From the NCBI GenBank assembly GCA_026706895.1, contig JAPOXW010000029.1:1-64000 (forward strand): a stretch of 64,000 nt of DNA, read 5' to 3'. The position numbers and the translations under genes were made by a program. The notes under the pieces are model-generated. The model saw nothing but the letters and a program-made list of their open reading frames with translations, made no database searches and had not been told where the DNA came from. This DNA is from Gammaproteobacteria bacterium. GTDB taxonomy: Bacteria; Pseudomonadota; Gammaproteobacteria; Poriferisulfidales; Poriferisulfidaceae. Below, piece after piece: positions 33,093 through 51,984 of this stretch; positions within the stretch are counted from its first letter, which is position 1; each line of letters opens with the position of its first letter.

Positions 33093-33359
33093 ATGATGGA
33101 TGCGAACATATTCCAGATCGTCGCGGTGCTGGCGCTCCTCGGTTTCATGTGGACGCTTCATCGCGAGGTCAGCAAGTTGCACAAAGATGTCGGCAATTTC
33201 CGCAAGGATGTCGGCAAAGACATTGCCGATGTCCGAAAGGACATGGCGGATTTGCGTCAGGAATTCGGCCGGGACACTGCCGACCTGCGCGAGCGCATGG
33301 CCAGAATGGAAGGCCTGCTGGAAGGCTTCGTCGGCCGCCCGCAGGAATCACAGCCCTAA
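33093..33359 (+). CDS. Small membrane-anchored coiled-coil protein
   Basis: An 88-residue protein with one N-terminal membrane helix (about residues 6-20) followed by a highly charged helix with heptad-like repeats ('VGNFRKDVGKDIADVRKDMADLRQEFGRD'), then a short tail. No family assignment is possible; many bacteria encode similar anchored coiled-coil proteins. It begins with two ATG codons after a purine-rich stretch. It lies between the DUF898 pair and gltB. Confidence 0.55.
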   Translation: MMDANIFQIVAVLALLGFMWTLHREVSKLHKDVGNFRKDVGKDIADVRKDMADLRQEFGRDTADLRERMARMEGLLEGFVGRPQESQP

Positions 33360-47700: not shown

Positions 47701-49194
47701 TCAGGACTTCTGGGCGTCCTTCATCAGGAAATGCGTCAGCAACGGCACCGGCCGTCCGGTCGCCCCCTTGCTCTTGCCGGTATTCCAGGCGGTCCCGGCG
47801 ATGTCGAGATGCGCCCACGGCGTGTCGCCGACGAAGCGCGACAGGAAGCAGGCGGCGGTGGTGGCGCCCGCGTAGCGCTCCCCGATGTTCGCGATGTCGG
47901 CGAAATTGCTGTCCAGTTCAGGCTGGTAGTCGTCCCACAGCGGAAGCGGCCAGACCCGGTCCCAACTTTCGCGTCCGGCGGCGACCAGCGCGCGCTGCAC
48001 CGAATTCTGGTACGTGAACAGCCCCGAGGCATGCTTGCCCAGCGCATGCAGGCAGGCGCCGGTCAGGGTGGCGATGTCGATGATCAGGCGGGGCTTGAAG
48101 CTGAGGGCGTAATCGAGAGCGTCGCACAGGATCAGGCGGCCTTCGGCGTCGGTGTTCAGGATCTCCACGGTCTGGCCGGAGGCAGTCGTGACCACGTCGC
48201 CGGGTCGGGTGGCCCGTCCGCCCGGCATGTTCTCGGTCGCCGGGATGATGCCGACCAGGTGCTGCGGCAGATTCAATGCCGCCGCCGCCTTGAGCGTGCC
48301 GAGCACGCTGCCGGCGCCGCACATGTCGAACTTCATTTCGTCCATCGCGGAGCTGGGTTTGATGGAAATCCCGCCCGTATCGAATGTCACGCCTTTTCCG
48401 ACCAGTGCGACCGGAGCCTTGGCGCGGACTCTGCCGCGGTATTCGATGACGATCAGCTGCGGTTCTTCCGGGCTGCCCTGCGCCACGGCGAGAAATGCGC
48501 CCATATTGCGTTTTTCGAGCTCACGGCGGCCGAACGACTTGACGGAAAAACGTGAATCTTCACGAATCAGCGAGCGGGCTTGGCGAGCCAGGTAACTCGG
48601 TGTGCAGAGGTTGGGCGGCAGGTCGCCGAGTTGCCGGGTCCAGATCATTCCGGACGCAATCGCCACGCCTTGATCCACCGCCTTGCGGACCCCGGCCCGG
48701 GTCGCCGTGGAGGCCGTGATCGTAACGGATTCCAGAGGCGTGGCCGGAGGCTTGGCGGAGGGCTTGGTCTCTTGGAAGACGTAGGCCGCGTTCTCCAGGA
48801 TCAGTGCGGTCTGGCGTGCGTTCCATTGGGCGTTCCTGCCGGCGACCCTGACTTCGCCGCTGGCGAGCGTCGCCGCGACCGTGGAGTCCTTGTGCAGGGT
48901 CCGGGCGATCTGGCGCACCGTCTTCAGGAAATCGTTTTCCCCGACCTTGCCGGATTCGCCGAAACCGGCCACCAGCAGGCGCGAAGCCTTCAGCCCGGCG
49001 GGGCGATACAATGCGTTGAGAGTTTCGGCCTTGCCGGCTGCATCCTGCTGGGAGAGAAGGTCGCTGACCGCCCCGCCCGTGATCCGGTCCACGGTTCGGG
49101 CACCGGGAGTCATCTGGCCGTTTTCGTAGACGCCCACCACCAGGCAGTCGCAAGCGATTTCCGCGGGTGAGGCGGTGACGACGGAATACTTCAT
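47701..49194 (-). CDS. pepA: Leucyl aminopeptidase (cytosol aminopeptidase)
   Basis: A 497-residue M17 metallopeptidase, a hexamer with two metal ions per subunit. 'VGKGVTFDTGGISIKPSSAMDEMKFDMCGAG' and the signature 'NTDAEGRL' carry the metal ligands and active-site residues. The N-terminal domain is more variable, as in the family. E. coli PepA also binds DNA in XerC/XerD-dependent plasmid resolution; xerD is 3.3 kb away, but adjacency of function is not implied. Divergent from lptF with only 22 bases between start codons. Confidence 0.96.
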   Translation of the reverse strand: MKYSVVTASPAEIACDCLVVGVYENGQMTPGARTVDRITGGAVSDLLSQQDAAGKAETLNALYRPAGLKASRLLVAGFGESGKVGENDFLKTVRQIARTLHKDSTVAATLASGEVRVAGRNAQWNARQTALILENAAYVFQETKPSAKPPATPLESVTITASTATRAGVRKAVDQGVAIASGMIWTRQLGDLPPNLCTPSYLARQARSLIREDSRFSVKSFGRRELEKRNMGAFLAVAQGSPEEPQLIVIEYRGRVRAKAPVALVGKGVTFDTGGISIKPSSAMDEMKFDMCGAGSVLGTLKAAAALNLPQHLVGIIPATENMPGGRATRPGDVVTTASGQTVEILNTDAEGRLILCDALDYALSFKPRLIIDIATLTGACLHALGKHASGLFTYQNSVQRALVAAGRESWDRVWPLPLWDDYQPELDSNFADIANIGERYAGATTAACFLSRFVGDTPWAHLDIAGTAWNTGKSKGATGRPVPLLTHFLMKDAQKS

Positions 49195-49216: not shown

Positions 49217-50881
49217 GTGAAGAAAGCAAATTCTATCAAACTGCGCCCTTCCGCCTCTTTGAAAAGCCGCCTGGGCCAAGGCCTGTCCGACCTGGACCGC
49301 TATCTGTCGTCGCTGGACCGCCGCATCGCCGAGCTCGACCTTCGGCTGAGCCGGAAGATTTCGCGCGGCACGGGCAGGCTGCTGTCGCTGATGCCGCACC
49401 TTGGACGGATCGGCGGGAAGGCGCGCGCTGCGCTGGCGTCGGGCTGGTCCGGCCTGGACCGCTATCTGTCGTCGCTGGACCGCCGCATCGCCGAGCTCGA
49501 CCTTCGGCTGAGCCGGAAGATTTCGCGCGGCACGGGCAGGCTGCTGTCGCTGATGCCGCACCTTGGACGGATCGGCGGGAAGGCGCGCGCTGCGCTGGCG
49601 TCGGGCTGGTCCGGCCTGGACCGCGATCTGACGTCGCTGGATCGCCGCATCGCCGACCTCGACCTTCGGCTGAGCCGGAAGATTTCGCGCGGCACGGGCA
49701 GGCTGCTGTCGCTGCTCCTGCGTCTGGGGCGGGCTGTCGGCAGGGCGCGCGGCGTGCGAGTGTCGGGCCCGTCCGGTTTCGGTTTCCGTACGGCTGGCCT
49801 GCCCGGCTCGCGCCTTTCGATCTTGGATCGCTACCTGGTGCAGGAGCTTTTGCGCGCTGCATTTGCCGTCACCGTGGTTCTGCTGCTGCTGATCGCCAGC
49901 AAACTCTTCATGCAGCAACTCGGCTACCTGACCGAAGGCAAGTTCTCCACGGGCATCGTCTACGAACTCCTGTTCAACAAGCTTCTCGCCTACTTTGTCC
50001 ACATGCTGCCGTTCCTGATGCTCCTGTCGTCGGTGCTGGCGCTTGGCCGCCTGCACCGGGACGCCGAGGTGACGGCACTGCATTCCTGCGGCTACTCCGA
50101 TACCCGGTTGCTGCTGCCCATGGCATTGGTCGGCATTCCCCTGGCCGTCATGCTGGGGGTGATGAGCCTGTACGTCACGCCCAGGCTATCGCTCGAAGCG
50201 GAACTGGCCCATCATCAGGCCCGCCTGGAGGCGGGGCTGGACCTGATGCAGGAAGGCCGGTTCATGCAGACCCGGAACGGACGCTGGGCGCTGTACGCGA
50301 GCCGGACGAAGGGACAGGTTGCGGAAGACGTGTTTTTTGCCAGCTACGATGCGGAATCGCAGCAGGTTCATATTGAAACCGCAGCCCGGGCCACCCGGGC
50401 CCGGGACCGGGAAAACGGCGTCTACGTACTGGATTTCGAGGATGGTCGTTGGCATAGCGGCTGGCCGGGCGACGCGGACTTCCAGACCATGAAGTTCGAC
50501 CGGCATCTGCTACGGGTCAGCATGGCGCCGCCGCCCAACGTCTGGACACAGACCAAATACATGACGCCGGAGCAGTTGGGGGAGGACGGTTCCGCGGCAG
50601 CCCACGCGGAATTGCAATGGCGGTGGTCCCTGCCGATCTCGCTGCTCCTGATGCTGGCGCTCGCCGTCCCGCTGTCGCGCAGTTCGGTCCGGGAAGGGAA
50701 GTACGCCCGTGCCGTCTACGCGATCGTCATCTACCTGGTCTATGCGCAGTTCCAGTTGCTGGCGACCAGCCAGGTACGGGGCGGGAATTGGCCTGCCTGG
50801 GCGGGCGTCTGGTGGGTGCATGTGCTGATGGCCGCGGGAATCTTCCTGTTGTACCGACAAGCCCGGCGGAGTCGGACATGA
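49217..50881 (+). CDS. lptF: LPS export permease LptF with repeat-bearing N-terminal extension
   Basis: The last 352 residues or so are LptF: membrane helices start at 'LDRYLVQELLRAAFAVTVVLLLLIASKLF' (about residue 204), with the periplasmic beta-jellyroll in between and helices at the end. LptF forms the transmembrane part of the LptB2FG exporter. The unusual part is residues 1-200, formed largely by a 54-residue unit repeated three times ('LDRYLSSLDRRIAELDLRL...'), basic and amphipathic, with coiled-coil-like spacing. Start codon uncertain: GTG at 49217 opens the frame, but GTG 49754 or TTG 49823 would give a protein of ordinary length. The 22-base gap to pepA leaves little room for a promoter unless it is inside pepA or the repeats. 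Confidence 0.85.
   Translation: MKKANSIKLRPSASLKSRLGQGLSDLDRYLSSLDRRIAELDLRLSRKISRGTGRLLSLMPHLGRIGGKARAALASGWSGLDRYLSSLDRRIAELDLRLSRKISRGTGRLLSLMPHLGRIGGKARAALASGWSGLDRDLTSLDRRIADLDLRLSRKISRGTGRLLSLLLRLGRAVGRARGVRVSGPSGFGFRTAGLPGSRLSILDRYLVQELLRAAFAVTVVLLLLIASKLFMQQLGYLTEGKFSTGIVYELLFNKLLAYFVHMLPFLMLLSSVLALGRLHRDAEVTALHSCGYSDTRLLLPMALVGIPLAVMLGVMSLYVTPRLSLEAELAHHQARLEAGLDLMQEGRFMQTRNGRWALYASRTKGQVAEDVFFASYDAESQQVHIETAARATRARDRENGVYVLDFEDGRWHSGWPGDADFQTMKFDRHLLRVSMAPPPNVWTQTKYMTPEQLGEDGSAAAHAELQWRWSLPISLLLMLALAVPLSRSSVREGKYARAVYAIVIYLVYAQFQLLATSQVRGGNWPAWAGVWWVHVLMAAGIFLLYRQARRSRT
49291..49776 (+). repeat. Tandem 162-bp repeat inside lptF (three copies)
   Basis: Copies begin at 49291, 49453 and 49615. 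Copy 1 (49291-49452) and copy 2 (49453-49614) read identical base for base. Copy 3 is close for its first 100 bases or so (few substitutions, e.g. TATCTGTCG becomes GATCTGACG) and then diverges. The unit is exactly 54 codons, so any duplication keeps the frame. Perfect identity of two copies implies recent duplication or active gene conversion. Confidence 0.95.
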
Positions 50882-51984
50882 GTATCCTGACTCGCCACCT
50901 GATTTGGCGCGTGCTGGTCGGGATTGGGCTGGTGGCGCTGGCCGTGGTGACGATCTTGACCTTGGTGGACCTGATTGACGAGGCGCGCCGAGTGCGTCCG
51001 GGAGGCTATTCGTTTGCGGATGCCTTATGGGTGATCGTGCTGACCATGCCGCAGCGCATCTACGAAGTGCTGCCGGTTTCGGTGTTCATCGGCAGCCTGC
51101 TGAGTCTGGGTCAACTGGTCGCGGACAACGAGATGACGGCATTGCGCGCATCGGGGGTGGGCGTGTGGTGGCTGTCCAGGAGGCTGCTCTCGGTGGGCCT
51201 GCTCTTGGCGCTGGCGACCATTTTCATCGGAGAGAAGATTGCTCCGGTGGGCGGGGAATTGGCCTGGGACATTCGACAGCAGCCACAGAAGGGGGCCTCG
51301 GTCGGAGAGACGCAGGGGTTATGGGTTCGCAAAGGCGACCATTACCTCCATGTGCTGCGGGGAGATCGGCGCGACCGCCTGTCTCAAGTGCTGGCGTATC
51401 GCCTGGACGCCGATGGCGCCCTGGAGCATAGCCTGCATGCGAAGAGCGCGCATCTGGCGGGCGGGCGCTGGATCCTGTCTAACGTCCGGGAAAGCGTGAT
51501 CCACCCGGACGGGAGCGTGACTCGTGAGGAGCACGCACTAAGAACCGACGTGGCTCTGCCGGATGTCGACGTGTTGGATACGATGCTGATGCCTGCTGAT
51601 GAAATGCCGATCACACGCCTGAACCGCTACCTAAACTACTTCGAGGGCGAAGAACTGGATTTGCGCCCCTACCGATTCGCTTGGTGGCAGCGCTTCGCCA
51701 CGCCTCTGGCCTGCGTGGTGGTCTTGCTGCTGACGGTTTCGTTCACTTTCACCCAGTCCCGCGGCGGGGGGCTCGGGCAGCGCATCTTCATCGGCGTGGT
51801 CAGCGGCATTGGCATCTACTTGTTCAACCGGGTGGGCGGGCACTTTGGAATGCTGATGGACTTGCCGCCTTGGCTGGCGGCATTTCTGCCGCTGGTTTTG
51901 CTTTTCCTGCTCGGTTGTGCGGTGCTGCTGGCGCAGCAGACAAATACGCGTCAGCATCCGGGCAATCTTCCCAGCCAGGCATAA
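50878..51984 (+). CDS. lptG: LPS export permease LptG
   Basis: This 368-residue partner of LptF has six transmembrane helices. N-terminal helices are in 'MSILTRHLIWRVLVGIGLVALAVVTILTLVDLIDE', the coupling region 'RIYEVLPVSVFIGSLLSLGQLVADNEMTALRASG' is strongly conserved, and the final helices include 'CVVVLLLTVSFTF' and 'PLVLLFLLGCAVLLA'. The ATG overlaps the lptF stop (ATGA), giving coupled translation. A longer frame from 50617 overlaps lptF and is not real. Confidence 0.96.
   Translation: MSILTRHLIWRVLVGIGLVALAVVTILTLVDLIDEARRVRPGGYSFADALWVIVLTMPQRIYEVLPVSVFIGSLLSLGQLVADNEMTALRASGVGVWWLSRRLLSVGLLLALATIFIGEKIAPVGGELAWDIRQQPQKGASVGETQGLWVRKGDHYLHVLRGDRRDRLSQVLAYRLDADGALEHSLHAKSAHLAGGRWILSNVRESVIHPDGSVTREEHALRTDVALPDVDVLDTMLMPADEMPITRLNRYLNYFEGEELDLRPYRFAWWQRFATPLACVVVLLLTVSFTFTQSRGGGLGQRIFIGVVSGIGIYLFNRVGGHFGMLMDLPPWLAAFLPLVLLFLLGCAVLLAQQTNTRQHPGNLPSQA

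What the first reader, a model, noticed from the sequence alone, without database searches (positions are those of the whole stretch)
49217..49823. LptF with a 200-residue N-terminal extension made of 54-residue repeats
LptF homologues normally begin with the first membrane helix. Here three copies of a 162-bp unit precede it in frame, two of them identical at the DNA level. The repeat opens with LDRYL, the same pentapeptide that opens the native LptF N-terminal helix (residues 204-208), so it may derive from it. A cytoplasmic coiled-coil extension could tether or regulate the LPS exporter. Identical copies also predict copy-number variation between strains.
Basis: partly seen in the sequence, partly recalled or inferred. 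Interest (0 to 1): 0.7.

Follow-up and report, generated by a model that had tools for sequence, protein, structure and literature searches.

The report
LptF with a repeated N-terminal extension
In a lineage of sponge-dwelling sulfur bacteria, one membrane part of the machine that exports lipopolysaccharide carries an extra front piece built of 54-residue repeats; close relatives have anything from none to three copies, so it looks like a translated but optional add-on rather than an essential regulator.

Summary
lptF (GTG 49217-50881, 554 aa) has about 199 residues before a normal LptF core, including three in-frame 162-bp units; units 1 and 2 are identical. Record titles of two relatives name Candidatus Porisulfidus. 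Genus orthologues carry 3, 1, about 1.5, at least 2, or no units. A pepA tree puts the unit-free TsSOB inside the unit-bearing clade, so the extension was lost there and is dispensable. The first codons hide, on the other strand, an extended -10 element at a near-fixed distance from pepA (18 of 18 loci of two families of the order; 0 of 11 outside the order). In the outgroup it is intergenic, so lptF's start appears to lie over pepA's promoter. A sister family also has an lptF head over this element plus a spacer of variable length. Most likely a translated, length-variable, largely dispensable cytoplasmic extension; a regulatory tether is possible but unsupported. Derivation from the LptF helix is only suggestive.

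The parts
49217..50881 (+). lptF, 554 aa, GTG start, extended N terminus plus normal LptF core
49217..49291 (+). head, codons 1-25 (MKKANSIKLR...GLSD); start and first codons shared with G002, N75, G003; GTG also in G004
49230..49240 (-). TTTGATAGAAT, extended -10-like element, probable pepA promoter, inside lptF codons 5-8
   Evidence: sequence conservation only
49292..49453 (+). unit 1, 54 codons
49454..49615 (+). unit 2, identical to unit 1
49616..49777 (+). unit 3, diverged terminal type, closest in its second half to the single unit of G002
49778..49813 (+). tail between last unit and core
49814..50878 (+). LptF core (LSILDRYL...)
47701..49194 (-). pepA (aminopeptidase; name recalled, not searched in a family library), conserved divergent neighbour, 22 bp from the lptF start
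50881..51984 (+). lptG, read in frame from 50881
   Evidence: PF03739, 237 bits

Best explanation
lptF is translated from GTG 49217, so LptF carries about 199 extra cytoplasmic, mainly helical residues: a 25-residue head, three 54-residue units and a short tail. Inferred steps: (1) in this order the lptF start lies upstream of the divergent pepA promoter, so the first codons of lptF also encode pepA's -10 element on the other strand; (2) the stretch between that head and the LptF core is a permissive spacer that grew by in-frame tandem duplication of a 162-bp unit and shrinks or disappears by recombination between units; (3) the exporter works with or without it. Selection keeps the reading frame and the first, heptad-like half of each unit (helix, solubility), while the rest drifts. 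The extension is thus real protein but largely dispensable. Shown: repeats, frame, copy-number differences, constraint on the first half, absence in relatives, conserved element. Inferred: translation start, promoter activity, neutrality of the length.
For: Same GTG start and AGAGG upstream in G000, G002, N75 (L037), G003 and G004, with LptF cores 98, 97 and 90% identical to G000 in G002, G001 and G004. Extension lengths 199, 91, 120, >=138, 10, 10 codons, all in frame without stops. First 27 codons of the unit: 5 amino-acid changes against 9.5 expected (fraction 0.0025, G000/G002) and 5 against 8.3 (0.0215, G000/N75); G002/N75 8 against 10.9 (0.073); second half 15 against 14.7 and 10 against 10.1, i.e. 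neutral. dN/dS 0.16, 0.21, 0.29 in the first half against 0.96, 0.75, 0.70 in the second for three cross-genome pairs; a fourth (G000 unit 1/G002) 0.24 against 0.34. The frame pattern (+0 and -1 low) matches the LptF core control. Between-clade dS of unit 1 (0.53) equals that of the core (0.55), so the unit was probably present in the common ancestor. pepA tree: G001 (no unit) groups with G002 (one unit) inside the clade, support 90-95. Element TGNTANNWT at -44 from the pepA start in 7 of 7 genus genomes and at -52 to -56 in 11 of 11 family-f2 genomes, 0 of 11 class loci outside the order and 0 of 1 f3 locus with a located pepA. TTTGNTANANT occurs 6 times in 73,762 bases (both strands) of six genus loci, and each of the six has it at this place. 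In f2 heads synonymous change is halved (pS 0.311 against 0.678 in the core), as expected of DNA-level use.
Against: No RNA or protein data. Over the whole extension the codon test is weak (fractions 0.016-0.13), positions are not third-base heavy, and within-genome copy 3 against copies 1/2 shows a non-synonymous excess. No sigma-70 site was found by the consensus scan; the -10 has no clear -35. Constraint on half of the unit argues that part of it matters. The f2 family keeps a head of fixed protein sequence, which could mean a function of the protein.
Confidence: 0.6

Rival explanations
1. Functional tether or regulator: the helical, basic extension binds LptB, anionic lipids or a partner at the inner membrane, and unit number tunes the exporter.
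For: First half of the unit is under purifying selection; predicted helices 13-74, 77-127, 132-177 for the extension alone (mean pLDDT 59); net charge +29 in G000, +9 to +14 in the others, +10 to +20 in f2; conserved head in 10 of 10 aligned f2 genomes.
Against: No units in G001, G004 or G005, with the core intact in G001 and G004; second half neutral; the charge is within nucleotide-shuffle range (10-33); f2 and genus heads show no profile similarity; f2 head conservation is partly at DNA level.
Confidence: 0.22
2. The repeats are not translated: lptF starts near the core and the repeats are leader sequence or belong to an antisense or other-frame product.
For: Antisense and alternative frames are open over the array; weak codon signal over the whole extension; GTGs at codons 180/182 and TTG at 203 exist in G000.
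Against: No start codon with an SD-like site shared by G000, G002 and N75 near the core; frame kept in every length variant; first-half constraint in frame; f2 heads run in frame into the core in 10 of 10 aligned genomes at 26-29% GC.
Confidence: 0.1
3. DNA/RNA-level role: the extension DNA is kept for control of the divergent pepA/lptF pair (overlapping 5' transcripts, spacing), its protein being incidental.
For: Conserved pepA -10-like element in the head; E. coli pepA/lptF is a listed 5'-overlap double-stranded RNA cluster, S-372 (PMC7373196, passages seen).
Against: Concerns the head only; the units lie beyond the element, vary in number and are missing in relatives that keep it.
Confidence: 0.08

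Closest known systems
LptF (TIGR04407 / PF03739), LPS export permease
   Same: Core 200-554 scores above the curated cut-off; pepA-lptF-lptG gene order; LptC, an LptA domain and LptD present in the genome
   Different: About 199 residues precede the core; 27 of 29 LptF open frames outside the order are 400 aa or shorter (range 343-436, stop to stop)
In-frame tandem repeats of variable copy number in bacterial genes (coding VNTRs; general knowledge)
   Same: Identical neighbouring units, length a multiple of three, copy number differs between close relatives
   Different: Placed before the first membrane helix of an exporter subunit; long unit, few copies
   Same: Upstream start, head covering the pepA element, spacer of variable length (60-100 residues before the core)
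   Different: No repeats seen; conserved KYTK...KW...Y head; no detectable profile similarity

Membership tests
LptF | Match to LptF equivalog model above cut-off | tested here: met
   TIGR04407 265.9 bits, cut-off 230, residues 202-546
LptF | lptG directly downstream, pepA divergent upstream | tested here: met
LptF | Protein begins with the first membrane helix | tested here: not met
   core at residue 200; usual in the family, not required by its models: a variant of LptF
Coding tandem repeat with variable copy number | In-frame units, near-identical, number differs between relatives | tested here: met
   strain-level variation only suggested (N75 against G003)
Coiled coil | Confidently predicted coiled-coil helices | tested here: inconclusive
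   single-sequence model pLDDT 59, full-length 39; no Pfam coiled-coil hit over cut-off
Divergent promoter inside a coding sequence | Conserved promoter-like element at near-fixed distance from the pepA start | tested here: met
   7 of 7 genus and 11 of 11 f2 loci
Divergent promoter inside a coding sequence | Measured transcription start | not testable with these tools
   needs RNA data

The most novel reading that the evidence does not exclude
The LPS exporter of this order is remodelled: LptF has gained an N-terminal cytoplasmic spacer of adjustable length with a head that doubles as the neighbour's promoter, and in the genus LptC and LptA are one protein; unit number tunes coupling of the exporter to the membrane or to a partner.
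Probability: 0.13. Interest if true: 0.65.

Novelty: new variant of a known kind. Interest (0 to 1): 0.38.

Why it matters
It shows that a core exporter subunit tolerates a large, rapidly changing N-terminal extension, and gives a clear natural case of a gene start that has come to lie over its neighbour's promoter, so that one stretch of DNA serves as promoter on one strand and as protein on the other. If the length has a function, the relatives with 0, 1, about 1.5 and 3 units are a ready comparison series.

Tried and rejected
Rejected: the unit found elsewhere (plasmids: none; 368 class genomes: own genome plus one 31% match at 1.9e-4 in G107, in a low-complexity region by the ORF list, judged chance; own contig C18, E 0.0155 with a stop, judged chance). 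PDB sequence search gave nothing below E 0.08. Family search of the extension: nothing over cut-off. Homology of the f2 head with the genus head: not detected. Excess positive charge: within shuffles. Recent transfer of the unit between clades: dS equals that of the core. Structure models were too weak to search with, so no fold search was made. LptC missing and replaced by the extension: no, LptC is present. Literature: searches for LptF with 'N-terminal extension', with 'tandem repeat', and with cytoplasmic/N-terminal/homologs/amphipathic listed no paper whose title or abstract start concerns this; open-licence library only, listings seen, passages of one review read (PMC10094684).

Full report
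Observation. The window's lptF runs from GTG 49217 to 50881 (554 aa). Both LptF models begin at residue 202-205, leaving about 199 residues in front. These contain three 162-bp units at 49292-49777; units 1 and 2 are identical, inside a 172-nt exact run. In 367,984 bases of this genome (window plus 20 further stretches) no other tandem array comes close: score 825 against at most 204.

Where it comes from. One scan of public genomes returned 4 relatives. Of 55 genomes searched, the genus has six (G000-G005). The name is not in the held taxonomy. PMC9123188 uses Ca. Porisulfidus as outgroup to SUP05 (one passage seen).

Variation. Before LSILDRYL there are 199 codons in G000 (3 units), 91 in G002 (1 unit), 120 in N75 (one unit and a truncated second), at least 138 in G003 (contig ends inside the array), and 10 in G001 and G004 (no unit). 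G005, the distant member, starts at ATG just before VLDRYL. GTG is shared by G000, G002, N75, G003 and G004, five of seven; in G001 it is GTA and lptF must start further in, probably at the GTG of codon 9. A pepA tree over 481 codons places G001 with G002 (support 90 and 95 in two methods) inside the clade that includes G000, so the extension was lost in G001. It was probably lost in G004 too, since unit 1 of G000 and N75 differ at synonymous sites as much as the cores do (0.53 and 0.55); the nearness of G004 to N75 rests on distances (0.057 in pepA), and the rooting on that side is weak (support 39-61).

Is it protein? The frame is open in every length variant. Re-placing the observed substitutions at random shows fewer amino-acid changes than expected in the first 27 codons of the unit (fractions 0.0025, 0.0215, 0.073 for three pairs) and none of this in the second half (0.68, 0.59); the whole extension gives 0.12, 0.13 and 0.016; the head alone 0.51; LptF core controls give 0.0. 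Results against: substitutions are not concentrated at third positions, other frames give similar whole-extension dN/dS, and copy 3 differs from copies 1/2 by 13-15 non-synonymous against 4 synonymous codons. No shared internal start with an SD-like site exists near the core. I hold translation likely (about 0.85), constraint modest.

The head and pepA. pepA starts 22 bp away on the other strand. At -44 from the pepA start lies TGATAGAAT (TGATAAAAT in G001, TGCTAAAAT in G004, TGTTAGAAT in G005): 7 of 7 genus genomes; family f2 has TGGTATATT at -52 to -56 in 11 of 11; the pattern is absent from the 110 bases upstream at 11 of 11 class loci outside the order, and at the one f3 locus (L020 gave no located pepA). 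TTTGNTANANT occurs 6 times in 73,762 bases (both strands) of six genus loci; in f2 loci 16 times in 88,896. The shorter pattern TGNTANNWT is expected about 0.01 times per 110 bases in the genus and 0.17 in f2, these sites included. In G005 the element is intergenic; in the extended genomes and f2 it falls inside lptF codons 5-9. The sigma-70 scan found no full site. That this is pepA's promoter is inferred. In E. coli pepA/lptF is a 5'-overlapping pair in a table of PMC7373196 (passages seen).

Sister family. In 10 of the 11 f2 genomes with a match, LptF starts with a head of 11 invariant columns (MK...KYTK...KW...Y...K.K) followed by a spacer, 60-100 residues in all before the core; the eleventh (G018, other genus) keeps IKYTK in a longer frame. 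Synonymous change in nine of these heads is half that of the core, so DNA-level use probably adds to their conservation. No similarity to the genus extension was detected.

Origin and structure. The unit's SDLDRYL resembles the native SILDRYL; shuffles give 0.012-0.019 for N75 DNA, nothing for G000 or G002 DNA, and 0.04-0.22 for protein. A short head/tail match (12 nt in N75, 14/2000; 10 nt in G002, 34/2000; not in G000, 462/2000) fits a duplication of the gene's 5' end. Six such DNA comparisons were made, without correction. AlphaFold2 gives helices with low confidence (pLDDT 39 full length, 59 extension alone).

Verdict. A real, probably translated, in-frame, length-variable N-terminal extension of an otherwise ordinary LptF, most likely dispensable, sitting behind a head that overlaps the neighbour's promoter.

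Noticed in passing
L094:997-2061 (-), i.e. G000:C1 about 117.1-118.1 kb: LptC and LptA are one 354-aa protein in the window's genome: Pfam LptC at 17-187 and LptA/LptD_N at 225-331, the only LptD_N match in the genome. LptC open frames are 389-465 aa in 6 of 6 genus genomes but 184-208 in the 11 other order genomes with a match, so the fusion looks genus-wide; the LptA part was checked only in G000.
   Followed up: partly
L037 (MPMZ01000015.1): Record titled Nitrospira sp. bin75 carries pepA and lptF of this genus, pepA identical to that of G003: probably a mislabelled or mis-binned contig.
   Followed up: partly
L030 (G003:C95 start): Contig ends inside the lptF repeat and no LptF core was found in G003: the repeat probably broke the assembly, so the copy number there is unknown.
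   Followed up: no
L071:197-312 (G000:C1): 33-bp tandem repeat, 3.5 copies, 93% matches, period a multiple of three.
   Followed up: no
window 33168-33251: Two weak overlapping 21-bp tandem repeats.
   Followed up: no
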